A DNA stretch of 22,258 nucleotides. Source: a virus. The notes under the pieces were generated by a model, which searched no databases, was not told the origin of the DNA, and was given only the letters and a program-made list of their open reading frames with translations. The DNA lies in the IMG/VR virus record IMGVR_UViG_3300024054_000062, positions 1-22,258 of that record; one strand, written 5' to 3'. The position numbers were made by a program, and so were the translations under genes. Shown one piece after another: positions 1,705 through 22,258 of the stretch (the stretch's first letter is position 1; every line of letters begins with the position of its first letter).

Positions 1705-4700
1705 TCATGGAATGTAGGATAGCACCTCTTCGGCAGTCATTCCAAGCGGTTGGCCAATCTGGTTCAACAACTTTATTACAACAGACGGTAAATTTCCGTC
1801 AGACAATTTAATCAGTTCGTAGGTATATTCATCCATCTGCGACATAATAACAAGCCGCTTATATTTCTCTGCCTGGTCAAAGTTTCCTCTTACCGTATTG
1901 GAATACAAATTCCGCATAGACTTGCCAAAGTTCTCGTATGCGGCAATGTCTGGGTTATCGTTGTAATACTTTCTTGCCTTTGTTGTATCCATTGACATAG
2001 ATTTAAAATTCTCGTACTTTGTCAGAATACCCGGCCAGCGTTCTTCGGCAACCCGATCAATTTCAGCAGAAATCGAGAAGTTTCCATTACTGCTATCCGT
2101 TTTACTTTTCTGATATTTCATCAGCAAAGCAGCATTATCCTCATCCGGTGTAGTTTCGCTAATCCCCTTCAAAATATCCTGCGCCCCAACAGAATTTAAT
2201 TGTGCGTCTGTTCGGATCAGCGGCTTCGGCTGTTCAGGAAAGAGATCGGATGCTTTGTCTATTGCTTCCGCAATCTTGCCCTCATAATTATCTTTCAATT
2301 TCCAGTATTCTTTGACTTTCGGAAAATCCCTCAAATATTGAGCGGTATCACCGTTGTTATCTTTGAGATAGTAATACCCGTCCAGTTGTTCAAACACTTC
2401 TGCGCCGAATTTCTTGCCGGCTTCCCGGTAAAATTGAGAGCGATAATAGTTTTCCAGGTAATCCAATCCGCCATAATATTTGGACAACAGCGGATCAGCC
2501 AAAACAACCTGTTGTCTGTACTGCAAATAATTCTGCACATTCGGGTGCTGTTGTAAAAACATTTCAGCTTTTGAGTAATCTTTGGTTCCAAGCACCTGGT
2601 AATACTGATCCACAAGTTCTTTGGTATCAGTACCAAACGTCTCAACGCTATACCGGTTCAACAAAGAATTTCTGGCCCGCACCGCCGCCCATTCGTGTGA
2701 TGTGGTTCCATCCGGCACCGCCAGCACAATACCAATATCGCGCGCTGCGGCAATCAGGTGCATCCGGTCTGTTTCAGCCATCCCCGCAAGTCCCTTGTTG
2801 TCATAAAAAGCGTTTAGAATATTACGGCTCAATCCAACCGAGTCGATGATATTATCCTGTGAACCTGGCGGTATCCTGTTTAGCACCGCCCATACGTATG
2901 CCTCGTCCCGAACATCATCCGACTTTCGCGATAGCATCACCGTTTCCATGAACGGGTAGCGTTCTTTGAATTTCTGCCACGCCATTGCGTACTTTTCAGG
3001 TGACATATTCGGCTTGTTTAGCATAATAGCGTTCATTTCAGAATATGCCTTGTCAATCAGGGCATCCCCGGTATTTCTCCCCTTGAAGCCAATTCCCAGC
3101 ACGCCGCCCATAGCCTGCGAGAATCCTCTTTGCGAGTAGAACGGCTTTTCCGGGTTGTTAACAGAATACTGCATTGCCATATTCCATATTTCACCGGACT
3201 GTTGATAAGCAGCATCGTCTGCCTGTTCGAGGGTGATCACGCCATTATTTACCATCTGCCCCAGAGTCCTACCAACGCGCCGGCGGTCATAATTTGACAT
3301 GCCGCCCTGCATCAGCATCAACGGATCAAGCTCGATACCGGCTGGTGTAATGATCGGGTTATTGCCCTTTACACCCAACATCGCAGATGCGCCTTTGATT
3401 GCACTGGTGATTGGAACCATGCGCCCGGCAAATACGCCGGCAGATTCAGGATTTCCCTTGATCCAATAATCCAACGCCACAGCCATTGAAATAGGTGTCC
3501 AAACAGAAGGGCCGAATTTGCCAAGACCATCCACGGTTGCGCCAAAAGCAGACTCTCTCCTCTGCGGGTCGTCAAAGTCCACGCCGATGATCCCATTCAG
3601 CGGATTGAGTGTCGCTTCCAGGTTGAAGTACAACGGATTTTCACTGTCAATTCCAAGTAATTCATTGGTATTCACCTGGTATCTGTACCACTCTGGCATC
3701 CCGGCATGAATCTTTTCCATGTAATCACGGTATCTGCCATAGGTCGCGCCCAAATAAGGGTTTTTTACGATTCGTTTCATCCAGTTACCGTAGGTTCTGG
3801 AATACCAGTATTGATACGGGTAAACATAGGCCAGCAGTGCATCTATTCCACGCTTATCTCGGTAATCCAACAGAGTGAATTTACGCGCCGCGCCGCTGAT
3901 CTTCATTGCCGTGGCTCTGGCCGTTGCCATACGCCCTTCAATAACCTTACCAAATTGAGCGAGTGCCTTTTCCTGCGCGGTTGTCAAAACAATCGGTTTT
4001 TTGGGAACATAGTTTCCAAGAGAATCCATCACCATATTTACCGTGCGCTCGATCTCCGCGACCGTTTCCTGCGCCATATCATATTGTGTCGGTATCTCTG
4101 GTGTGGCGTTCTTTATGTGAGCTCCAACATTCTGGGTCTCGCCATCACCGGCTATTTCCGCTCCAATCTTATTCCCGGCCCTGTACGTTAAATCATCCAT
4201 TTGGTCTGCATCGTTCACATCCAGCGGGCGCAAATCGGAGATTTCGCCATCAATATCACTCAATTCCCGCTCAAGTTCCGCGACTTTATTGGTCCTTCTG
4301 CGCTCATTGATTTCCGTAACATTCATCCGTGATTGTTTCGCTGTATTTTTTCCAATGGTTGCTTCCTGTCTGGAAGTCTTATATGATTTTGACCGCCACT
4401 TTTTTAGCTCCTCCTGCACATTCGCGCGTTTTCCCTGTAATACGTCAAGCTTCTTTGCGTCCTCTGGTGAAAGGGTTTTTCTCAAACCAACCAGGTCGGA
4501 TAACTCGTCCACGTCCTTTTGGGTGGCTTTGCCATCACTGACCTTTTCGATCAATTCTGTGGCGCGTTTAGTCTTTTCGGTGTATTTAGGTTTCTCAATG
4601 ACGCGAAGTTTTCCCGTACTTCTAAAATACTCCTTGTCCGCTTTATCCATCTGGTTGCACTCTTCCCCCAGATTTTGCGCTTTCAATACAGCGGAATCTT

Positions 4701-7700
4701 CCACCAGCACATCGGGGTAGGCGGCTTTCAGGTCTTCTAATGCGCCGTCATATTCCGCAAACAACTGTTTTCGCAAAGAAGTGTTAAGTTTTTCTTTTGT
4801 TGCATAAAACTTTTTCCAGGCAGTATGTTTCTTGATAGCCGCTTCCGATTCGGTGATCTTGCCGGCTCGTTGTTCCTCGATAATATCGTCAATGGCTTTT
4901 TCGATATTCGCGTGCAGTTCTTGTGTCTTTCGCCGCAAGGTATCTGAATACGTTTTCCAGGCAGTATCGCGTCTGGCTCTGGCCGCATTCAACTTGCGAT
5001 AATCACCAGTTGTTCCAAGCGTTCGGTTGATCTGATCCACCTGCCCATCAAAAGCATTCTGATACACCCGCACAGTCTCATCTTTTTTCAGGTTCTTACG
5101 GGAAAGCAGGTCATATTCGTAATTACCAGAATCCTCGTCCAGTTCATCCAGTTTTTTTAGCAGGTCATCTTCCATGTCCTGCACTTCTCTGTGAATCCCA
5201 TCTGGTGCCTTGCCGGCAGCTTCCTGTGCATTTGCCCGGTCAGCCAGTCTTCGTCTTTCCTCGATGGTCTGGCGTAACATTCGCTTCATTTCAGCCGGAT
5301 TGTCCCGGTGCTGGCGAATAATATCTAAAACCACATCGTCCAGTTCTGCTTTGTGCAATTCTGCGATCTGGTCTACAGAAAGGAAATCTCCAAGATCCAC
5401 CTGTTTCCCGGCAACGGTGTCCTTGATAGCCTTCCACACATCCCCGTAATTATCCCAGGTGCCGTTTTTGATAGCCTCGACCTGCGCCGGTGTGAAGCCT
5501 GCATCCGCAAGAATACCTTGCGCATCCTGCATCATCACCTTCCACATCCTGCGCATTTCTCTATCCACCGTCTTCGCGGCCACCATCTTTGCTGAAGCTG
5601 TCTCGATCTTTGCATTCCACCTGCGAGAGAAAGCCATCCGATCCCAGATAGATTTACCATCAATGGTATTTTCGATACCACCACCCTTGAAACCAATCGT
5701 TGCAAGGTGACCGGCTCCCCAGCCATCCAATATTCTATCTGCTCTGGCACCGGAATACTTGAACCCGCCCAGCAAAGCATCTGGGTGATCTATTCCAATA
5801 TGGAACATATTAGTCAGATAGTTTCTGGTAGCAAATGCCGGGTTGATACCCATATAGGTAAAGGCAAAGAAGCGATTGATCGGGCCGACCAGGTTCTTTT
5901 GTACCGCTTCATGGAATTGCAATATCCTGACAAGTGCCGGGTTTACAGTTCCAAGTTTTCCGTTCTTTGCCAAAGTTAGCATGTAAGCTGGAATGTCTTT
6001 GCCGGATTCTAATGCGACTTGTACCGCCTTCGCTTGTTCTGCCTGTTTCACAATAGACGGGAACATTCTGGCCGCTGCGTTTTCAATCCGTTTAGATAAC
6101 TTATCTGTCAGGAAGGTCAATGCGTTGGCTCCATCCCCTTTGACACTCTCCAACAGTTTTGTAATGCCCTTAATGTCAAACACGCCGTCAGAATTGCTGA
6201 ACATCTGCTTGAAACCAAGAAAAGCGTCCAGCATATCATCGCCGAGAAGTATTTGCGCTTCCGGCATTTTAGATATTCTCGCAACAGCCTCTAATCGTTC
6301 CGCGTCTGTTCCAGCCACGATCTTTAACATGTCGTGTACAACATTTCCAAAGTCTTCCATCGTGCGAATTTGTTTAGACTTTGCCAGGATGGTAAAGGCA
6401 TCGTGCATCTTATCCACTAATCTGGCTTGCAAAGCGGTTGAAACTGGCGAGAAGATGCTCCTTTGCGTTGCGCTTTTCACTTGTTCCGCTGTGCGAATTT
6501 TTACCCGTTCGGCAAGCCATGAAGATAACTTTTGTGTGGGTGATTCAACCCTTTTAACTACTTTGGCAGAATCAACCACCTCTTCCGCCAAATTCGCTGT
6601 GTCAGAAACAGCGTTGGTTGTTCTGGCAATGTCACCCAGATTGTCGGCAGCGTTTGCCGCTTCACCCAGATTACCCGCAACTTTGGCGGTATCGCCCACG
6701 GCATTTGTAACCCTGGATACATCCGAAACAGTATCCAGCGAATCAACAATACTTTCTGCTTTGGCAATATCTGTTACTGCATTCACGCTTTTCAACAGAT
6801 CAGCCCCATCATCGGCGATCATCACGCCTTTGACGCCTGCTTTTGCGGCTCCAGCACCACCCGGAAATAGTAAATTCAGTGGATCTAAAAAAGACTGGCC
6901 GACCATTTCTGCCAGCGGATTCTGCAATTCCTGCATCAACAAGATCGGGTTTTCGCCCGCCCTGTATCTTCGCAAGTATTCAGCGATTAATCCGTCTTTG
7001 AATAGGGATGAATAAGCGATGCGCGAAGCAGCCCAGGCTTCATACCCGGAAATATCCTCTCCCATCTTTGCCTTGATTGCAATGGTTCCAATCAATCGCT
7101 CCGCGCCGTACCCAATATTGCCGAGCAATTCCATACCCCCGCCAAGTAATTGTTTTACGCCTTTCAGCACATATCCGATTCCATAGGGTAAGGTCAGTCT
7201 TTCGGCGTTTGTCCAGGCTCTTCCAGCGGTAGATACAGCCTCTCCAACAGTTTGCAAGACAGGGGAGGCGGCTTTGGTTGCATCCTCAACGAAAGTACCC
7301 GTCTTATCAGATATAGCAACACCGGCTTGTTTAAACGATTCTGGGATTTCATCCCAGTTATCTTTCTGGATGATCACAATTGGTGTCGTGTCCTTGTTCT
7401 GAAAATCATAAAGGACATTTCCCCACCAGTTCTTCATGGCATTACTGACCTCTCCCCAGAAATTGGGGTCTGGGTCAATATCTCCCCAGTAAGGTTTCCC
7501 GTACTGGTCAAACATGGTTGCCATCCACTTCGTTCCATCAGTCCGCTGGATAGTCGGCAGCGGTTCACCGCTCATACCCGTTTTGCCGCCAGGTTCAAAG
7601 TTTTCGTTGGATTGTTTAGGGTCTATTACGGGAGATTCAGCACTTCCGATATCAGACGCTTTCGCCTGAACCGGTTGTTGTAAAACGGGCTCCTGTTTCA

Positions 7701-8811: not shown

Positions 8812-10570
8812 CCTGCCCTCCCTGCGTCATGCCAGTCTGCATTTCCCTGGTCATTTCCGGGTTCATCATCTGCGCCGGGATACCGCCCTGGTTCGGATCA
8901 AAACCAATCCCGTTAGCCGGGTTCTGCGGTAATGGCGCGTTATTTGCCATCTGGTTTACCTGCGCCTGCTGCTGTATTTGTGACTGTTGTAATTGCAAAG
9001 CCATTTGGCCCTTCTGTTGCATCAGCGCAAGTTCATTCTGCAGCATCGCCTCGCGCACCTTCTCCTTATCAGAAATGCGCATAGCCCTTGCTGGATCTGT
9101 AACCCCGATTTCTTCCAGTGCATATTCTTTGGGGAAGCCTAATTGCAGGGCCATCATAGCAGCATTAATCTTTTGCTGTCTATCGGTTGCCACGTCCGGC
9201 GATAGCTCAACGCTCAAATTCAGCCTTTCTGGCAAAGCATTAGGATCAAGTATCATTTGTTTTCCAAATGCATCCGCAGAACGGTCGTTATAGAACACCG
9301 CACTATTGTTATGTCTGATCCACTTGAAGAACAATTTGCAAATATCCGCAGTGACCTGTTCGGCAAGTTCCCGATATTGCCTGATTTTTGCAACACCAGT
9401 TTGAATGGACATGTTATAAGTGGCAAAGTTCACGTTCACTGGTGTATTGCCCTCTGTCATCATTCTGGGTAGGGTGCTTTTTGACATGGATTGCGTCAAT
9501 AAGTTCAAAGCGGTCGGAATATTTGGGTCAACCGGCTCTACTGGGATAGACTTATAGTCCACACCGGTTGGCAAATCCACCCTGCCACCGGGTGTCATAT
9601 AGTCAAACTCAACCACTTCGCCGCCCGGCCCTTGAAAGATATGTCTGGGGGCAGCGGCCCTGGCGATCATGTCAGAGATCAACAAACTTTGCGCGATATT
9701 CACGGTCTCCCAATCACCAGAATGATAGATGGGTGCCAATAAAGGACTAACTTGATACTGTGGGTCAGTATCCAAAGTAGTGCCGCCCACGCGACAAGCC
9801 CACGGCATGAAAGGCAATCCGTGATCTTCGTCTAAAATTCTATAGGTAGCCCCGCCGCCATACCCATCCCCGGAAGCCCACACAACTTTTCGGTCAATAT
9901 CACAATACTCATAAATATAAATATCATCGTTCAGGTTTGACGGGTTTCCCTCATTCACCCTGGAAGTCAATTCCTTTGCGGATTTACCGTAGAAATTGAT
10001 CACGTCCGCCACTTTCCATTTGCTGACATACAGAATCTGTTCCGGGACAATATCAGAGTAATTGACATGCACATCTTTGGGGTGTCTGACGGTGACAATC
10101 CAATCTCCGTACTCATCCCGTGCGTTTTTCCAGCGTTTTTCTTCACCCGGTCGTTTAGCAATCTTTTCCTGCCACGGCAAATAGGTTACCTGGGCGGCCA
10201 CCATATCATATAGAATAGCCGAGCGCATCAGATCACGAATCACAGAAGTTCTGCGTCTCAATGAAGCCTCTTTCAGGCATATACCGAGATACCGTTCCCA
10301 GGTTTCCGCCTGATCCTTGTTCGCGTCATCATCAGCGAGTGGCACGATCTTAATTCTTGGATCCAACCCGGAAAATATCTGAATTGCAGTCTGAACCGCA
10401 TCTCTGGGATCACTATTTTTTACCGTTCTGATCCACTTATATGACTTCAAAGCGGGTGGTAATTCCCACTTTACATGGTACATGTCATCCATTTTCGAGA
10501 ACAAGTCATTTCTTTTGCCATCATTCCCGATCATTTCTGTTGCCAATTGTGTATAGTATGAAAAATCCAT
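8798..10570 (-). CDS. Portal protein
   Basis: A 590-residue protein directly after TerL (stop TAA followed immediately by ATG), with GGGAGG at the end of terL serving as ribosome site. Portals form the dodecameric ring at the capsid vertex through which DNA is packaged and the tail attached. Typical features are an N-terminal helical part, a segment with NSDPRDAVQTAIQIFSGLDP near residues 50-72, a beta-rich wing region with VRHPKDVHVNYSD near residues 160-175, and long helical crown segments after residue 380. Residues 500-590 are Gln/Asn/Met/Pro-rich (QLQQSQIQQQAQ), a common low-complexity portal tail. The call follows from gene order, size and general pattern; I did not see a single diagnostic motif. 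Confidence 0.85.
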   Translation of the reverse strand: MDFSYYTQLATEMIGNDGKRNDLFSKMDDMYHVKWELPPALKSYKWIRTVKNSDPRDAVQTAIQIFSGLDPRIKIVPLADDDANKDQAETWERYLGICLKEASLRRRTSVIRDLMRSAILYDMVAAQVTYLPWQEKIAKRPGEEKRWKNARDEYGDWIVTVRHPKDVHVNYSDIVPEQILYVSKWKVADVINFYGKSAKELTSRVNEGNPSNLNDDIYIYEYCDIDRKVVWASGDGYGGGATYRILDEDHGLPFMPWACRVGGTTLDTDPQYQVSPLLAPIYHSGDWETVNIAQSLLISDMIARAAAPRHIFQGPGGEVVEFDYMTPGGRVDLPTGVDYKSIPVEPVDPNIPTALNLLTQSMSKSTLPRMMTEGNTPVNVNFATYNMSIQTGVAKIRQYRELAEQVTADICKLFFKWIRHNNSAVFYNDRSADAFGKQMILDPNALPERLNLSVELSPDVATDRQQKINAAMMALQLGFPKEYALEEIGVTDPARAMRISDKEKVREAMLQNELALMQQKGQMALQLQQSQIQQQAQVNQMANNAPLPQNPANGIGFDPNQGGIPAQMMNPEMTREMQTGMTQGGQDVGF

Positions 10571-12124
10571 TTAGCCTCCCAAAGCCAAGAACGGGTTCAA
10601 CGTCTTCTTCTTCTCAAAAGACGGTAATTCATCGTTGTTGTAAGGCATAGCCAGCACATCCGGCATACCGCGCAAAGCCCAATAGACTGCATCCATTGCA
10701 TCATCATGTCTATTGTTAGGGTACTCCCGCAATTCTTTCCGCAGTTCGTTCAGGAACGGAGTATCGGCATCCGAAATCCTTACGCGCATGCTTTCAAGCC
10801 ACGGGCCCATTTGCCGCTCCAGCCTTTCCATCTTCCCTTTGCCGCCGGTTTTCATCGGAGTGATCTTCAATCCAGGCTTCATCATCAAAGCCTGTATAAA
10901 TTCCTCGCCTTTACCATCTCCCTCGACCACACAATGCTGCCACCCCGGAAATGTTCCCTGCGCCTTCTCCACATAACCCAATGCGGGAAGCATGGTGGTT
11001 CTCTCCAGCACTCCGTCCATCACTACCGCTCCACCCATCGGCAATTTGCACACATACGCCAGAGCGAAATAATCCGTATCTAATTTGGCTCCGCCGCCAA
11101 CATTCTTCATAGAGGACGCATAGTCCACCCCGCCGACAACCGGCCACGCACCGTTGATCTGCGCTGCCGGAAAATCATAGAACCGGAACACCTGACTATC
11201 CGCCTTACTCAAATCCAATAGATACATCCTGGCAAATTCGATCTTCGCACTCATCGCCCGCCTGATCCTAATCTCGCTCTCCGGAAATCTGGACGGCCAA
11301 ATGCTCTTATACTTCACCCCATCTAAATCAAAACCATCCTCACACTCAATCACAATCGGCGTCTTTACGCGAATAAATTCATCCAACTCCGTCATTCCCA
11401 TGACCGGATCATTTTCTTTCCACGGCGTAAAGACACAGCACATCCACGCGCCTTTTACGATAGTAGGAAATAGAGTACCTGTCATAATCTTCCTGACAGT
11501 CTCCATCTCCTTATCGCTGGCCGTATTGTTCTCATCCAGAATGTCATCAATCAACAACATCCCGGTAACGCGCTTACCAATAATTGCCCGGCTTTTATAC
11601 CCCAATCCAATGAACGTCGGGTCTTTCCTGTCCGAGTTCAGCCTTCTCCATTGACCATACGGAATATCATCCCTCTTTACTTCATACCCACCAGCCCCCC
11701 AGCCCTTCTCCATATCTGGAACAACATTCGGAAAACACGACTTCCACCCCGGATTATTGGCTATAATATCCGCTACTTTCTCGGAATTGTCCTGTGCAAT
11801 ATCATCACCCACCTGAACAGTCAAATAAGTTTTATCTGGCTCATGCCCAATCCGAAAACAAAGAAAACTGGTCAATACCGTTGTCTTGGCACTGCCACGA
11901 AAAGCCTCAATAGCAAAATACTTCCCCTGTTCCCTGGCTTCATACAACTGCTCAATCCAATCAATAGCAAACTTCGTTAGCCTTCTGCCAGTAATAACCT
12001 CAAAGAAAGCGGAAAAACCCTCAACATTATCATTCTCTCTGGCAACAACAGATAAGAGTAACTCTTCCGTAGCCTTGATCTGCTCCGGCGTGAGCGACTC
12101 TATATAATTCTTGATTTCATCCAC
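10571..12124 (-). CDS. terL: Terminase large subunit (packaging ATPase/nuclease)
   Basis: A 517-residue two-domain terminase that pumps genome into the prohead and cuts it. Walker A is FRGSAKTT (residues 75-82), Walker B MLLIDD (189-194), and the coupling segment VFTPW (231-235). The RNase H-like nuclease has acidic residues in GGVDYAS (D334), VVEGDG (E401) and HDDAMDA (D474, D475, D478). Length is normal. The start is GTG at 12124; the frame is closed by TAA 15-18 nt upstream and there is no ribosome site. A TATACT hexamer ends exactly 6 nt before the GTG, suggesting a leaderless mRNA. Portal follows immediately. No convincing small terminase is next to it. Confidence 0.95.
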   Translation of the reverse strand: MDEIKNYIESLTPEQIKATEELLLSVVARENDNVEGFSAFFEVITGRRLTKFAIDWIEQLYEAREQGKYFAIEAFRGSAKTTVLTSFLCFRIGHEPDKTYLTVQVGDDIAQDNSEKVADIIANNPGWKSCFPNVVPDMEKGWGAGGYEVKRDDIPYGQWRRLNSDRKDPTFIGLGYKSRAIIGKRVTGMLLIDDILDENNTASDKEMETVRKIMTGTLFPTIVKGAWMCCVFTPWKENDPVMGMTELDEFIRVKTPIVIECEDGFDLDGVKYKSIWPSRFPESEIRIRRAMSAKIEFARMYLLDLSKADSQVFRFYDFPAAQINGAWPVVGGVDYASSMKNVGGGAKLDTDYFALAYVCKLPMGGAVVMDGVLERTTMLPALGYVEKAQGTFPGWQHCVVEGDGKGEEFIQALMMKPGLKITPMKTGGKGKMERLERQMGPWLESMRVRISDADTPFLNELRKELREYPNNRHDDAMDAVYWALRGMPDVLAMPYNNDELPSFEKKKTLNPFLALGG

Positions 12125-12372: not shown

Positions 12373-12576
12373 CGCGAAAGAGGTGGGGAGATATTACTAG
12401 AACGTAACTTACCTGAATATCGGTAACTTGGAGGAAATTATTGGGTGAGAAATGCGCGCACTGTAAGCCAACGGTCTGCCAATAGGATCAACCAACGAGC
12501 CCCCACCCTACCGACCATCCGCTTGCTGACGCTGAAGAAACACGCCTGATCCGGCTCGATCTGGGGTATCGTCACC

Positions 12577-12799: not shown

Positions 12800-12836
12800 T
12801 ATCATGCTACACTATGTGTATATCACAGAAAGGATC

Positions 12837-13067
12837 ATGAAAATGAACAAGATTAATTATTTTGGCATGGTGTGTAATAGCGTGGACTATGGCGGAGTGC
12901 AGATTGTTCAGAACCCCCTAACCGGCTCCTGGATGTTGTTCTTCGATAATAAGTATCCCGACCAACTACCATATAGCGGGACGCTGACAGCGATGAAGGC
13001 GGTGGTCAATACGGCCGTGCGTAAGGGCGGCGAGGGGTATTTCATCAAGGCTGGAACGTACAAATAA
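12837..13067 (+). CDS. Small accessory protein, unknown (anti-defence candidate by context)
   Basis: A 76-residue protein. I chose the ATG at 12837 because AGAAAGG lies 4 nt or so before it; an ATG at 12804 in the same frame has no ribosome site, and a second ATG at 12843 is possible. The protein is neutral to slightly basic and compact, with aromatic residues (GSWMLFFDN near residue 30, GEGYFIKAGTYK at the end), and could fold as a small alpha/beta domain: beta strands at residues 7-35, a helix around residues 50-62, and a last strand. I recognise no family. It is read away from the structural operon and opens the accessory block carrying the solitary CRISPR repeat, so an anti-defence role is an inference from context only. 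Confidence 0.6.
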   Translation: MKMNKINYFGMVCNSVDYGGVQIVQNPLTGSWMLFFDNKYPDQLPYSGTLTAMKAVVNTAVRKGGEGYFIKAGTYK

Positions 13068-13181: not shown

Positions 13182-13739
13182 ATGTCAGAATTAATCGTCG
13201 TCAACACCCGCCCGGAGCCGGATCCGTATTTTACCAACCAGGCAACCCAAACCGTCGTCTACGTTGTTCTGTCGAACGGTCAGTATGGCATCGTCCAAGA
13301 GGACGATGCCAACGCGATCACCAGGACACGCTGGCATCAGCATGAGCTAGCAGCCACCATCACCCGCCCGGATCAGACCGCCGCTGTCGCGTATATGCAG
13401 GGGGCTGCGGAGCTGGTCGACCGTATCATAGCTGGATCGTCCATCGACTATGACGGCCGTCACCTGGCGGGTAACCTGGACGACGACGCGCGCGCCGCCT
13501 GGGATCAGCTGGTAGATGAGCTCGGGCAGCTGCCGTCGTCCGACTGGACGCTCTGGCATGCCTCGGAGTGGATCGATCAGGCGCTCCCCAACGACGCCGA
13601 GCTAGCCGCTCTCACCGATGATCAGATATCGTCTATGGCCGCCGAGTACGCCGACTACGCCGAGTCAGAGCATGCCGTGATCGCTGGATCGATCCAGGAC
13701 GCCATCCTGGCCGCCAGAGACCTGGCCCGGGCCGAGTAG
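13182..13739 (+). CDS. Strongly acidic lysine-free protein, unknown (possible DNA mimic)
   Basis: A 185-residue protein with 32 Asp/Glu, no Lys and only 9 Arg by my count, so its net charge is very negative. The N-terminal 45 residues look beta-rich (TVVYVVLSNGQYGIVQED); the rest is helical with acidic clusters (NLDDDARAAWDQLVDELG, then ALTDDQISSMAAEYADYAESEH). Such composition is typical of DNA-mimic proteins that block nucleases or repressors, but also of proteins from high-GC donors, and codon use here is visibly richer in GC than in the structural genes. No family is recognised. It has a good ribosome site (AGGAG, 7-nt spacing) and its own TATAAT. It is followed by a GC hairpin and the lone CRISPR repeat, making it an anti-CRISPR or anti-restriction candidate by context. 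Confidence 0.7.
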   Translation: MSELIVVNTRPEPDPYFTNQATQTVVYVVLSNGQYGIVQEDDANAITRTRWHQHELAATITRPDQTAAVAYMQGAAELVDRIIAGSSIDYDGRHLAGNLDDDARAAWDQLVDELGQLPSSDWTLWHASEWIDQALPNDAELAALTDDQISSMAAEYADYAESEHAVIAGSIQDAILAARDLARAE

Positions 13740-13761
13740 ATCATCCAGTAGTTTTTCTACA

Positions 13762-13786
13762 TGCCGCGGGGTGATTGACCGCGGCA
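13762..13786. terminator. GC-rich hairpin between the acidic-protein gene and the CRISPR repeat
   Basis: A perfect 8-bp stem, TGCCGCGG (13762-13769) with CCGCGGCA (13779-13786), around a 9-nt loop. No T tract follows on either strand, so intrinsic termination would be weak. Read on the minus strand it lies 20 nt downstream of the repeat and could define the 3' end of, or stabilise, a short repeat RNA. Confidence 0.45.
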
Positions 13787-13806
13787 GCCCCATATGTAAT
13801 AAGAAG

Positions 13807-13839
13807 GTTTCAATCCACGCCCCCCATACGGGGAGCGAC
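13807..13839 (-). CRISPR. Solitary type I-C-like CRISPR repeat (candidate RNA anti-CRISPR)
   Basis: A single 33-nt element that on the minus strand has all parts of a type I-C repeat: 5' GTCGC, stem CGCTCCCC with GGGGGGCG closing a GTAT loop (one G-U wobble in RNA), then the 3' end GTGGATTGAAAC (13818 down to 13807), which would supply the 11-nt Cas5d-generated crRNA handle. There is no second full copy at the 65-70 nt period of an array and no cas gene in the window. Only minus-strand RNA has the correct orientation; plus-strand RNA would have a C-A mismatch in the stem. The neighbours are a GC hairpin 20 nt away on the handle side and a small HTH gene that starts 18 nt away. Lone repeats in phages are known to mimic crRNA and trap Cas proteins (Racr). 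Confidence 0.85.
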
Positions 13840-13840
13840 C

Positions 13841-13855
13841 AATAGGATATTAACC
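13841..13855. repeat. Motif AATAGGATRTTAACC, copy at the HTH gene start
   Basis: AATAGGATATTAACC ends 2 nt before the ATG of the HTH gene and contains its ribosome site (AGGA). It begins 1 nt after the CRISPR repeat. A near-identical copy lies at the end of the same gene (14069-14083) and a shorter form, AATAGGATCAACC, at 12481-12493. On the minus strand it reads TATCCT just before the repeat, which could serve as a -10. Confidence 0.5.
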
Positions 13856-13857
13856 AT

Positions 13858-14073
13858 ATGAACACTAGCGATGATACTATGGAGATCATGACCACGACCG
13901 AAGCCGTCCAGTATGCCCTAGACGCCGGGGTCAGGATAACATACACAGGGATTGTGGGCGCGGCCCAACATGGCCGGATACCCGGGGCCCGTAAATTTGG
14001 CCGGGACTGGGTCATCCCATTAGCCGGGATGATCTACTACCTGGAGCACCGGTCAACGCAAAGGCCCAAATAG
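13858..14073 (+). CDS. Small HTH DNA-binding protein (excisionase- or Aca-like)
   Basis: A 71-residue protein whose residues 11-66 resemble the MerR/excisionase-type helix-turn-helix: MTTTEAVQYALDAG, a turn, ITYTGIVGAAQHGRIPGARKFG as recognition region, then the wing-like RDWVIPLAGMIYYL. Two roles fit. It may be the recombination directionality factor for the integrase encoded 0.6 kb away on the other strand. Or, since it follows the lone CRISPR repeat at 18 nt and is itself bracketed by copies of a 15-bp motif (13841-13855 and 14069-14083), it may be an autoregulator of the accessory block, as Aca proteins are for anti-CRISPR genes. The ribosome site AGGA is 10 nt upstream of the ATG. Fold call moderately sure; role open. 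Confidence 0.7.
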   Translation: MNTSDDTMEIMTTTEAVQYALDAGVRITYTGIVGAAQHGRIPGARKFGRDWVIPLAGMIYYLEHRSTQRPK

Positions 14074-14083
14074 GATGTTAACC
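14069..14083. repeat. Motif AATAGGATRTTAACC, copy at the HTH gene end
   Basis: AATAGGATGTTAACC differs by one base from the copy at 13841-13855. It contains the TAG stop of the HTH gene (14071-14073) and touches the stop of the convergent gene at 14083. The HTH gene is thus flanked by direct copies 228 bp apart. Confidence 0.5.
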
Positions 14084-14658
14084 TAATCCTCGTCTATAAT
14101 CTGCCCGTCTATGATCTCCCGCCGATCACGCAGCATCGCGAGCATTTCTTTGGCAACGTCCGCAGATATGGATACCTGTACTCCGTCCGGCTGGTCTTTG
14201 TATCGTCTGTCCCGCAACAGGCCAGCCGCGCCGAAAATAAATTTTGCGGCCTCGATACTGTCCCGGTTTCCGCCATCCAGGGCGATCTGGATGATCCTGC
14301 CGGCAATCGAGTCCGCGCCGCCCTCCCAATTAACATGCTTGGTGTGTTTAGCCATCGCGCCGCGCACGATCTCTTGCGCCCGCTGCTGGAAGAAGTCGCC
14401 TTTTTTCTCCCCCTGGTTTTCTTTTGTGATCGCATAGGCTCCACCGCGCGGGGGACCCTTCAAAAATGCCCCCGTAACCGTATCCAGAATTGCCCCACTG
14501 GCCAAAACCCTCTGATGATCTGGTTCTTCGCAAGTGACTCGATGTATCTCTCCGGTGGCCGCCAGGCGGATGTCGCGTATAACCGGATGCCCATGAGTTC
14601 CAACCTCTATAACGCCGTCATTCTCTAGCGGTTCAATTTCCTTTTTTGTTTCGTCCAT
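14083..14658 (-). CDS. Unidentified phage protein, small-terminase-like C-terminal half
   Basis: I chose the ATG at 14658 (191 residues) because a perfect TATAAT (14670-14665) ends 6 nt before it, as for other leaderless starts here; an ATG at 14697 in frame would add 13 residues and has no ribosome site either. Residues 15-65 carry a beta-rich segment ending near GAILDTVTGAFLKGPPRGG. Residues 85-155 are helical with ADSIAGRIIQIALDGGNRDSIEAAKFIFGAAGLL; the end is charged (EMLAMLRDRREIIDGQIIDED). Repeated-helix segments of this kind occur in small terminase subunits, and no other TerS candidate is in the window, but the gene sits beside the integrase, over 2 kb from terL. The function is therefore left open. 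Confidence 0.6.
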   Translation of the reverse strand: MDETKKEIEPLENDGVIEVGTHGHPVIRDIRLAATGEIHRVTCEEPDHQRVLASGAILDTVTGAFLKGPPRGGAYAITKENQGEKKGDFFQQRAQEIVRGAMAKHTKHVNWEGGADSIAGRIIQIALDGGNRDSIEAAKFIFGAAGLLRDRRYKDQPDGVQVSISADVAKEMLAMLRDRREIIDGQIIDED

Positions 14659-14664
14659 GTTTAT

Positions 14665-14670
14665 ATTATA
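14665..14670 (-). promoter_or_regulatory. -10 box TATAAT before a leaderless start
   Basis: A full-consensus minus-strand TATAAT separated by ATAAAC from the ATG at 14658. No -35 box at 17 nt. Transcription would start at or next to the start codon. Confidence 0.45.
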
Positions 14671-14700
14671 CGGCCAATGAATGATATCGGTATTCATACT

Positions 14701-14717: not shown

Positions 14718-15620
14718 CTATAAGTGATCCCCGGGGCTAAATCGAACGGATAGGCGCAGATCATCTTCCGTCTGTTTCAGATATCTACGGAGGACTTGCA
14801 GGTCTTTATGGCCCATTAACAATTGAAGCGTGAAAATATCCACCCCGGAGCGAAGGCAGTTTAATGCGTAGGATCGCCGGAATGCGTGGGGATACCAGAT
14901 GTGCGTTCCAGCCCTCTTGCAGATAGCAGCTAGAATGTGCTGTATGCTGCCATTTTTATAAGGCTCACCATAGCGATTACTAAATAATGATTGGCAGTTG
15001 TCGTTCCTGTGGAGCAGGTAGGCTCGCATCGCACGGCGTGCCTTCGCACCCAGCCATACTTTACGAGGTTCCCCGTTCTTCGTATCAGTCAGGACGATCT
15101 CCCCTGTGATCATGTTGTATTGTTTTCGCGTCAGTACAGACCATTCTCGCGCGCGGATACCGGTATCGTAGAGGAACAGCAATATAGCTTTTTCTTTCAC
15201 GCCGCAGACTTCCAGCATCCTGATAATATCTTCCGGCGGAACTGGTTCCAGCCGCTCCGGTTTCGGAGAGCAGAGTTTGACCTTATGTATTCCCGTCCTG
15301 GCGTCCGTTTCTAACTCGTACCACCGGAGGAAAGAGCGTATCGAACGATAAGCACCATGAACCCCCCCGGGATTGTGGGTGAGTTGCAGGTAGGCCAGAT
15401 AGTTCCGGACTACTTCCGCATTGATCTGGTTCATACTGTATATCTGACGATCTTCCAGCCAGCACGCCCAGGGCAACAGCTTTTTTGTATAGAAATCTAT
15501 TGTTGCCGGCGACCTTCCGGACACCTCTACGCAGCGCAGGTACATGTCCAGGAGATCCATAATCCCTTGTATTTGAATCTCATCAGATGTATAAGGTGTT
15601 TTACTCAAAATAACCCCCAT
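14718..15620 (-). CDS. int: Tyrosine-family site-specific integrase
   Basis: A 300-residue phage integrase that recombines attP with the host tRNA-Met. The N-terminal SAM-like core-binding domain spans residues about 18-105 (LDMYLRCVEVSGRSPATIDFYTKK, then YLAYLQLTHNPGGV). The catalytic domain follows: R156 in TGIRAREW, probable Lys in TDTKNGEPRK (K181), H245 and R248 in HAFRRSYALN, H271 in LLMGHKDL, and nucleophile Y280 in RRYLKQ. All key residues are present, so it should be active. The ATG at 15620 lies in one of two repeated ACCCCCATAT sites, suggesting that Int binding represses its own gene. attP is about 50 bp upstream. The start is not fixed by a ribosome site; TATAAC 8 nt upstream again suggests a very short leader. 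Confidence 0.95.
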   Translation of the reverse strand: MGVILSKTPYTSDEIQIQGIMDLLDMYLRCVEVSGRSPATIDFYTKKLLPWACWLEDRQIYSMNQINAEVVRNYLAYLQLTHNPGGVHGAYRSIRSFLRWYELETDARTGIHKVKLCSPKPERLEPVPPEDIIRMLEVCGVKEKAILLFLYDTGIRAREWSVLTRKQYNMITGEIVLTDTKNGEPRKVWLGAKARRAMRAYLLHRNDNCQSLFSNRYGEPYKNGSIQHILAAICKRAGTHIWYPHAFRRSYALNCLRSGVDIFTLQLLMGHKDLQVLRRYLKQTEDDLRLSVRFSPGDHL

Positions 15621-16535: not shown

Positions 16536-16574
16536 ATACCCATAAATAGCTACTTGGAAAGGAAGTGCTACTGG

Positions 16575-20839: not shown

Positions 20840-21430
20840 ATGAAAAAATATGAGCTTACTGACGAGGTAAACGAATATGGATTGCGCCGCATCAAATATC
20901 TGATTGATTTGCCCGGAATAAATGCTGGCGAATTAGGCGGATGGATTGAAAGCGAAAAAAATTTATCGCAGGATGGCAATGCGCAGGTATTCGGCAATGC
21001 GTGGGTGTACGGCGATGCGCGGGTGTACGGCGATGCGCGGGTGTACGGTGATGCGTGGGTGTACGGCAATGCGCAGGTATTCGGCAATGCGTGGGTGTAC
21101 GGCGATGCGCGGGTATTCGGCAATGCGCAGGTATTCGGCAATGCGTGGGTGTACGGCGATGCGTGGGTGTACGGCGATGCGCGGGTGTACGGTGATGCGT
21201 GGGTATCAAAAAAAACCGATTACCTGACAGTTAGCCCTATTGGCTCTCGCAATAGTACTACCACCTTCTTCCGAGAGGAAAAAGGCATTGCCGTAGTCTG
21301 TGGATGTTTCTATGGCTCATTGGATGATTTTACCAAGCGGGTCATAGAAACTCACGGCGATAACCGCCATGCAAAAATGTATCTAGCGGCAATAGAACTG
21401 GCTAAATTGCAGATGGAGACAGACAAATGA
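20840..21430 (+). CDS. Hexapeptide-repeat beta-helix protein
   Basis: A 196-residue protein. Residues 1-45 form an N-terminal cap (MKKYELTDEVNEYGLRRI, then AGELGGWIESEKNLS), residues 46-123 are 13 hexapeptide units of the form G(N/D)A(Q/W/R)V(F/Y), and residues 124-196 are a C-terminal domain (IAVVCGCFYGSLDDFTKRV, then HAKMYLAAIELAK). The hexapeptide is that of a left-handed beta-helix. N-terminal and C-terminal parts with this central region are found in phage and bacterial proteins of unclear role. The ribosome site is GAGGT 5 nt before ATG. The repeat DNA varies almost only at amino-acid-changing positions (see findings). It overlaps the next gene by ATGA. Confidence 0.75.
   Translation: MKKYELTDEVNEYGLRRIKYLIDLPGINAGELGGWIESEKNLSQDGNAQVFGNAWVYGDARVYGDARVYGDAWVYGNAQVFGNAWVYGDARVFGNAQVFGNAWVYGDAWVYGDARVYGDAWVSKKTDYLTVSPIGSRNSTTTFFREEKGIAVVCGCFYGSLDDFTKRVIETHGDNRHAKMYLAAIELAKLQMETDK
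20975..21208 (+). repeat. Thirteen tandem 18-bp repeats
   Basis: In-frame units GGC RAT GCG NNG GTR TWC, where the second codon is AAT/GAT and the fourth CAG/TGG/CGG; the last two are GTA TTC or GTG TAC. GGC and GCG never change. The order of units is NQF NWY DRY DRY DWY NQF NWY DRF NQF NWY DWY DRY DWS, which includes longer-period repetition of the block NQF-NWY. Confidence 0.9.
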
Positions 21431-21860: not shown

Positions 21861-22258
21861 ATGATCACTCAACTAACAAAAGAACAGACAGATAAGTTTC
21901 CTGCCTATTTAAAAGAATGGACTGGCTACGGGTTATTCACCGAACCAGCGAATAGACCGCTGGCTGAAGAAGGAATCCGCGAGATGTATGCTGTAGTGGG
22001 TTTGAAAGAGCCAAAAATTATTTGGACAACCAGCCCGATGGCAAACGCGTTGATTTACGCAATGGTAAAAGATAAGGCTTCCGTCAGGGCTTCCGTCAGG
22101 GATTCCGTCGGGGCTTCCGTCTGGGCTTCCGTCGGGGATTCCGTCGGGGATTCCGTCATGGCTTCCGTCTGGGATTCCGTCGGGGATTCCGTCTGGGATT
22201 CCGTCAGAGCTTCCGTCAGGGCTTCCGTCAGGGATTCCGTCAGGGCTTCCGTCAGGGC
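21861..22258 (+). CDS. Protein with DUF6745-like start and SV tetrapeptide repeats (incomplete)
   Basis: Open from ATG 21861 (ribosome site GAGGAA, 5 nt) to the window end, 132 codons. Residues 4-70 read LTKEQTDKFPAYLKEWTGYG, then GLFTEPANRPLAEEGI, MYAVVGLKEPKIIWTTSPMA; this resembles the N-terminal part of DUF6745-type proteins of unknown function (from memory). From residue 73 the chain is made of (A/D)SV(R/G/W/M) tetrapeptides, at least 15 units, a form likely to make a solenoid or coiled structure. The gene continues past the window. It follows the beta-helix protein, a second repeat protein built by the same kind of repeat expansion. Confidence 0.6.
   Translation, partial: MITQLTKEQTDKFPAYLKEWTGYGLFTEPANRPLAEEGIREMYAVVGLKEPKIIWTTSPMANALIYAMVKDKASVRASVRDSVGASVWASVGDSVGDSVMASVWDSVGDSVWDSVRASVRASVRDSVRASVR
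22077..22258 (+). repeat. Tandem 12-bp repeats encoding (A/D)SV(R/G/W/M)
   Basis: Fifteen complete units GMT TCC GTC NGG plus the start of another. TCC and GTC are never changed. Differences fall at position 2 (C/A: Ala or Asp) and position 10 (A/G/T: Arg, Gly or Trp), plus one ATG (Met) and one silent AGA. The array reaches the window end. Confidence 0.9.

What the first reader, a model, noticed from the sequence alone, without database searches (positions are those of the whole stretch)
13807..13839. Solitary type I-C-like CRISPR repeat in a phage: candidate RNA-based anti-CRISPR
Seen: one intact 33-nt repeat with GTCGC start, 8-bp hairpin (one G-U) with GTAT loop and GTGGATTGAAAC end on the minus strand; no partner repeat, no cas genes. 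Known: type I-C repeats have this length and form, Cas5d cuts at the hairpin base leaving an 11-nt handle, and solitary repeat units in phages can trap Cas proteins (Racr). Inference: the phage makes a short minus-strand RNA that titrates or misassembles the I-C Cascade.
Basis: partly seen in the sequence, partly recalled or inferred. Interest (0 to 1): 0.92.

Follow-up and report, generated by a model that had tools for sequence, protein, structure and literature searches.

The report
Lone CRISPR repeat in a phage
A bacterial virus carries one intact copy of the repeat used by the type I-C CRISPR immune system of Clostridia, most likely as an RNA decoy that jams that system, a strategy already known since 2023 (including for type I-C), so this is an untested new example rather than a new mechanism.

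Summary
Window 13807-13839 (minus strand) is an intact 33-nt repeat with an 8-bp hairpin, one U-G pair and a GUAU loop. There is no second copy in the window or in a 37,120-base record of practically the same phage. It differs by 1 base (the last) from repeats of Lachnospiraceae TD116_bin70 and Intestinimonas, and by 2 from Thermoclostridium caenicola, whose array sits beside type I-C cas genes. So it is a type I-C solitary repeat unit (SRU), far beyond chance. It lies between genes, in a cassette of opposite-strand cargo genes between terminase small and large subunits. Relatives keep that layout and the HTH gene there, but carry other cargo and no repeat. The best reading is an RNA anti-CRISPR (Racr) candidate that occupies Cas5/Cas7 of type I-C hosts. 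RacrIC1 was validated in 2023 and 2,103 viral SRUs were catalogued then, so this is a new member of a known kind. Not shown: minus-strand transcription (the repeat is antisense to its cassette; no convincing promoter), the real host, or inhibition. Guide, attP, coding and chimera readings were tested and look weak; an unexpressed remnant or a plus-strand antisense RNA cannot be excluded.

The parts
13807..13839 (-). solitary type I-C repeat unit GTCGCTCCCCGTATGGGGGGCGTGGATTGAAAC
13818..13837 (-). hairpin of the repeat: arms 13830-13837 and 13818-13825, loop GUAU 13826-13829, 8 pairs, one U-G
13807..13817 (-). would-be 11-nt 5' handle UGGAUUGAAAC if Cas5 cuts at the hairpin base as in characterised type I-C systems
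   Evidence: sequence; processing rule from PMC5965380; inference for this RNA
13762..13786 (.). second hairpin (TGCCGCGG/CCGCGGCA) 20 nt past the repeat on the minus strand, no T-run on either side; falls inside the 'spacer' position and makes a guide role unlikely
12831..13067 (+). cargo gene, 78 aa, pI 9.5, no family; only copy seen is in the same phage
13182..13739 (+). cargo gene, 185 aa, strongly acidic (pI 4.1, charge -23), 62% GC against 49% for the window; orphan
13858..14073 (+). small HTH DNA-binding protein (71 aa), 45% identical to a gene at the same place in two related phages; Aca-like or excisionase-like position
13843..13858 (.). TAGGATATTAACCATA, operator-like motif directly beside the repeat; a 2-mismatch copy lies at 14071-14086, so the pair brackets the HTH gene
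14083..14697 (-). putative terminase small subunit by position (no family match); conserved flank of the variable cassette
10571..12124 (-). terminase large subunit (phrog_38), other conserved flank
14718..15620 (-). tyrosine recombinase/integrase; 64% identical in relatives that lack the repeat

Best explanation
The phage carries a single type I-C repeat as an RNA decoy (Racr candidate). Shown: an intact, isolated, intergenic repeat with the hairpin and handle of Clostridia type I-C repeats, inside an accessory cassette that related phages fill with other genes. Inferred: a minus-strand transcript through 13839-13807 folds into the repeat hairpin, is bound and perhaps cut by host Cas5 at the hairpin base (22 nt upstream product, 11-nt handle), recruits Cas5/Cas7 into complexes without a useful guide, and so takes subunits from real crRNAs, protecting the phage. 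Expression could come from a weak local promoter or from read-through from the terminase small subunit gene.
For: Exact repeat architecture, 32/33 and 31/33 identity to arrays in Clostridia; the T. caenicola array adjoins Cas5c, Cas8c, Cas7c, Cas4, Cas1c, Cas2 by curated models. Differences keep the fold: stem A-U pair to G-U, and last base T to C. Solitary in two assemblies of 22 and 37 kb. Located in a variable cassette with orphan cargo (one strongly acidic) and an HTH gene, while relatives 73-81% identical on both flanks share no alignable DNA there except one 95-base element and have no repeat. Precedent: RacrIC1 next to AcrIC5 blocks type I-C immunity; 83% of prophage SRUs match the host subtype (PMC10651486).
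Against: No transcript data. The repeat is antisense to the cassette genes, whereas RacrIC1 is co-transcribed with acrIC5. Promoter-like sites upstream on the minus strand are at chance level (3 found in the region, 5.2 expected; the best one ranks 49th in the window). No genome searched has precisely this repeat, so a matching host CRISPR system is not shown. No known anti-CRISPR gene was recognised nearby.
Confidence: 0.6

Rival explanations
1. Recently captured, unexpressed remnant: the repeat came from a host CRISPR array by recombination or mis-integration and has no function yet.
For: No good promoter on its strand; seen only in one phage population; closest relatives lack it.
Against: Precisely one repeat with no leader or spacer remnant: flanks show no convincing match to the host arrays or leaders; all 33 bases fit the I-C form and fold; it sits in an accessory cassette.
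Confidence: 0.2
2. The plus strand is the active one: the 5' leader RNA of the HTH gene carries the reverse complement of the repeat and acts as an antisense RNA on host pre-crRNA, or as a regulatory hairpin for the HTH gene.
For: The repeat lies in the 118-nt leader of a plus-strand gene, where relatives have only about 16 nt; neighbouring genes are plus strand.
Against: The stem is better paired on the minus strand (-15.9 against -12.4); pairing to the structured repeat RNA would be slow; no precedent found in the papers read.
Confidence: 0.1
3. A one-spacer or one-repeat mini-array: the minus-strand RNA carries a guide against a rival phage or plasmid.
For: Viral mini-arrays are known (PMC11656645).
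Against: Only one repeat; the 38 bases after it hold part of a strong hairpin and match nothing convincing in 2.9 million viral contigs (exact 20-mer), plasmids or phages.
Confidence: 0.04
4. A DNA site: attP or recombination target for entry into host CRISPR arrays through the tyrosine recombinase.
For: An integrase gene lies 0.9 kb away.
Against: Relatives with a 64% identical integrase in the same place have no repeat; the repeat is not next to the integrase gene.
Confidence: 0.04
5. Assembly chimera between a host array and the phage.
For: Contig L021 (cas1/cas2-like genes and one repeat joined to virion genes) suggests that such joins occur in the same collection.
Against: Both flanks are phage, continuous, and identical in two records.
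Confidence: 0.02

Closest known systems
RacrIC1 (type I-C RNA anti-CRISPR next to AcrIC5, Bifidobacterium pseudocatenulatum prophage; PMC10651486)
   Same: Solitary type I-C repeat in a phage, intergenic, with the I-C hairpin
   Different: Here antisense to the neighbouring genes, no AcrIC5 or other known acr recognised, Clostridia-type repeat, no expression or activity data
RacrIF1 (Thiocystis violascens prophage SRU; PMC10651486)
   Same: Single repeat mimic with flanking phage RNA, proposed to occupy the processing nuclease and Cas7
   Different: Type I-F with Cas6f; here Cas5 is the processing enzyme; mechanism in I-C not resolved
Viral SRUs catalogued by SRUFinder (2,103 in viruses; PMC10651486)
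   Same: Meets the search criteria: repeat match, intergenic, no partner repeat
   Different: I could not check whether this record was in that catalogue
L019, IMGVR_UViG_3300021399_000309
   Same: Another viral contig with a solitary repeat of the same I-C family
   Different: There the repeat is in the same direction as its neighbours, between two small genes, followed by a terminator-like hairpin

Membership tests
SRU (solitary repeat unit) | matches a known CRISPR repeat of a defined subtype | tested here: met
   1-2 mismatches to arrays in Clostridia; one array beside I-C cas genes
SRU (solitary repeat unit) | no other (partial) repeat nearby | tested here: met
   best other 33-mer at shuffle level in 22 and 37 kb
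SRU (solitary repeat unit) | intergenic in a mobile element | tested here: met
   between stop at 13739 and start at 13858; the overlapping minus ORF 13665-14015 is antisense to a conserved HTH gene and not conserved itself outside that mirror
Racr, type I-C | keeps the repeat's RNA fold | tested here: met
   same 8-bp hairpin as host repeats
Racr, type I-C | host has a type I-C system | tested here: inconclusive
   repeat family belongs to I-C Clostridia, but the phage's host is not identified
Racr, type I-C | transcribed as a non-coding RNA in the repeat orientation | not testable with these tools
   promoter predictions at chance level
Racr, type I-C | inhibits type I-C interference | not testable with these tools
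   needs a plaque or plasmid-interference assay
Racr, type I-C | near anti-CRISPR genes (common, not required) | tested here: inconclusive
   orphan small genes and an HTH gene; no known acr matched in Pfam, PHROGs or NCBIfam
Viral CRISPR mini-array | at least two repeats around a spacer with a target | tested here: not met
   one repeat, no target found

The most novel reading that the evidence does not exclude
The repeat is used in the opposite sense: the plus-strand leader of the HTH gene carries an anti-repeat RNA that pairs with host pre-crRNA, or lets host crRNA or Cas proteins regulate that gene, so that the phage senses or silences type I-C immunity by antisense pairing instead of by repeat mimicry.
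Probability: 0.07. Interest if true: 0.75.

Novelty: new member of a known kind. Interest (0 to 1): 0.3.

Why it matters
It adds a Clostridia-type I-C repeat mimic to the few known I-C cases, in a terminase-side cassette whose cargo differs between related phages, and with an HTH gene beside it. The neighbouring orphan genes (78 aa; 185 aa, very acidic) become candidates for anti-defence proteins. Its antisense placement is a small open question about how such RNAs are expressed.

Tried and rejected
Partner repeat or hidden array: none. Array truncated by assembly: excluded by a longer record. Chimera at a spacer: both flanks phage in two records. Guide role: no target. attP role: relatives with the same integrase lack the repeat. 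Coding reading of the minus ORF 13665-14015: it is the mirror of the HTH gene. Rfam: no hit. Host by spacers: 159 spacers from eight array loci; the best match, 21/22 bases with one gap to 9195-9215 for a Lachnospiraceae TD116_bin70 spacer, is within chance for this many spacers and shifts frame. Host by terminase: no match in 391 Clostridia genomes at 1e-30; only distant (27%) spring-metagenome phages. Exact repeat in about 820 genomes of three orders: none. Structure of the 185-aa protein: pLDDT 47, unusable. The last viral scan with terminase relatives gave only already known loci because of poor seed peptides. One search used a mistyped pattern and is ignored.

Full report
Observation. The minus strand of 13807-13839 reads GTCGCTCCCCGTATGGGGGGCGTGGATTGAAAC. 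RNA folding gives the 8-bp hairpin with one U-G pair and a GUAU loop, -15.9 kcal/mol, z -2.9; the plus strand is weaker, with an A/C mismatch. The next best 33-mer in the window shares 19 bases, the level of shuffled sequence. The window is a virus record of 22,258 bases. A 37,120-base record of practically the same phage (IMGVR_UViG_3300044996_000123) is identical over the first 15,629 window bases. Apart from one base at 16543, its differences in the best aligned stretch after that fall in a tandem-repeat gene. It also has the repeat once. An array missed by assembly is therefore excluded.

What it is. A scan of 84,980 species genomes for this repeat, with one stem base and the last base free, found eight stretches in six genomes, all Clostridia or Bacillota by title. 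Lachnospiraceae TD116_bin70 and Intestinimonas have repeats identical except for the last base (T for C); T. caenicola and Bacillota FC6 differ at two bases. In T. caenicola the array follows Cas5c, Cas8c, Cas7c, Cas4, Cas1c and Cas2, each above the curated cut-off. The phage element is thus a type I-C repeat, and its changes keep the fold. None of the genomes has exactly this repeat, and a search of about 820 genomes of three orders found none either.

Surroundings. The repeat lies between a 185-aa gene (13182-13739) and a small HTH gene (13858-14073), both on the plus strand, in a cassette between the putative terminase small subunit (14083-14697, by position) and large subunit (10571-12124), both on the minus strand. 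Two related viral contigs (terminase large subunit 91% identical) have the same layout. DNA identity stops at about 12160 and 14084 on either side of the cassette, apart from a conserved 95-base element at 12425-12518. They keep the HTH gene (45% identical) but carry other cargo, have only about 16 nt before the HTH gene where the window has 118, and have no repeat. The interval is therefore a variable cargo site. The 185-aa protein is orphan, very acidic (pI 4.1) and GC-rich, 62% against 49%, as might be expected of an acquired anti-defence gene; that is inference. An operator-like motif, TAGGATATTAACCATA, adjoins the repeat and recurs after the HTH gene.

How it most likely works. In type I-C, Cas5 cuts the repeat at the hairpin base, leaves an 11-nt handle and stays on the hairpin (PMC5965380). 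RacrIC1, a phage I-C repeat, restores infection under I-C targeting on its own, and RacrIF1 traps Cas6f and Cas7f in a dead complex (PMC10651486). The same decoy action is the best-supported reading here. Shown: repeat identity, fold, isolation, cassette position. Inferred: transcription, binding, inhibition. The weak point is transcription. The repeat is antisense to its cassette, promoter-like sites on its strand are at chance level (best rank 49 in the window), and read-through from the terminase small subunit gene is possible but unproved.

Rivals. A guide role is unlikely: one repeat only, a hairpin in the would-be spacer, no target. An attP role is unlikely: relatives share the integrase but not the repeat. 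A remnant, or a plus-strand antisense or leader role, cannot be excluded.

Novelty. Phage solitary repeats, including type I-C, are known, and 2,103 viral ones were catalogued in 2023. Five other viral contigs in the same collection carry a single repeat of this family, of which L019 and L024 look like true solitary cases inside a contig, and one carries a six-repeat array. This is a new member of a known kind, with an unusual antisense placement.

Noticed in passing
L021 (IMGVR_UViG_3300008009_000668), 3169-4704: cas1- and cas2-like genes and one I-C repeat are joined directly to phage virion genes; probably an assembly join at a spacer/protospacer, otherwise a phage inserted in an array.
   Followed up: no
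L024 (IMGVR_UViG_3300050335_000039), 4858-4890: A solitary I-C repeat is flanked by a direct repeat (TGGCAGAAAGGGGGGGGGCTGGAGCAAAAAAAA on both sides), as if inserted with duplication of its target.
   Followed up: no
window 12425-12518: Non-coding 95-base element about 80% conserved in two related phages inside an otherwise unalignable interval next to the terminase gene; candidate packaging site, origin or regulatory element.
   Followed up: no
window 13843-13858 and 14071-14086: TAGGAT(A/G)TTAACC motif brackets the HTH gene; possible operator for autoregulation. Not found in the relatives searched.
   Followed up: partly
window 20975-21204 and 22076-22258: Tandem repeats (periods 18/54 and 12 bases) inside protein-coding frames; the first differs between the two records of the phage.
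   Followed up: no
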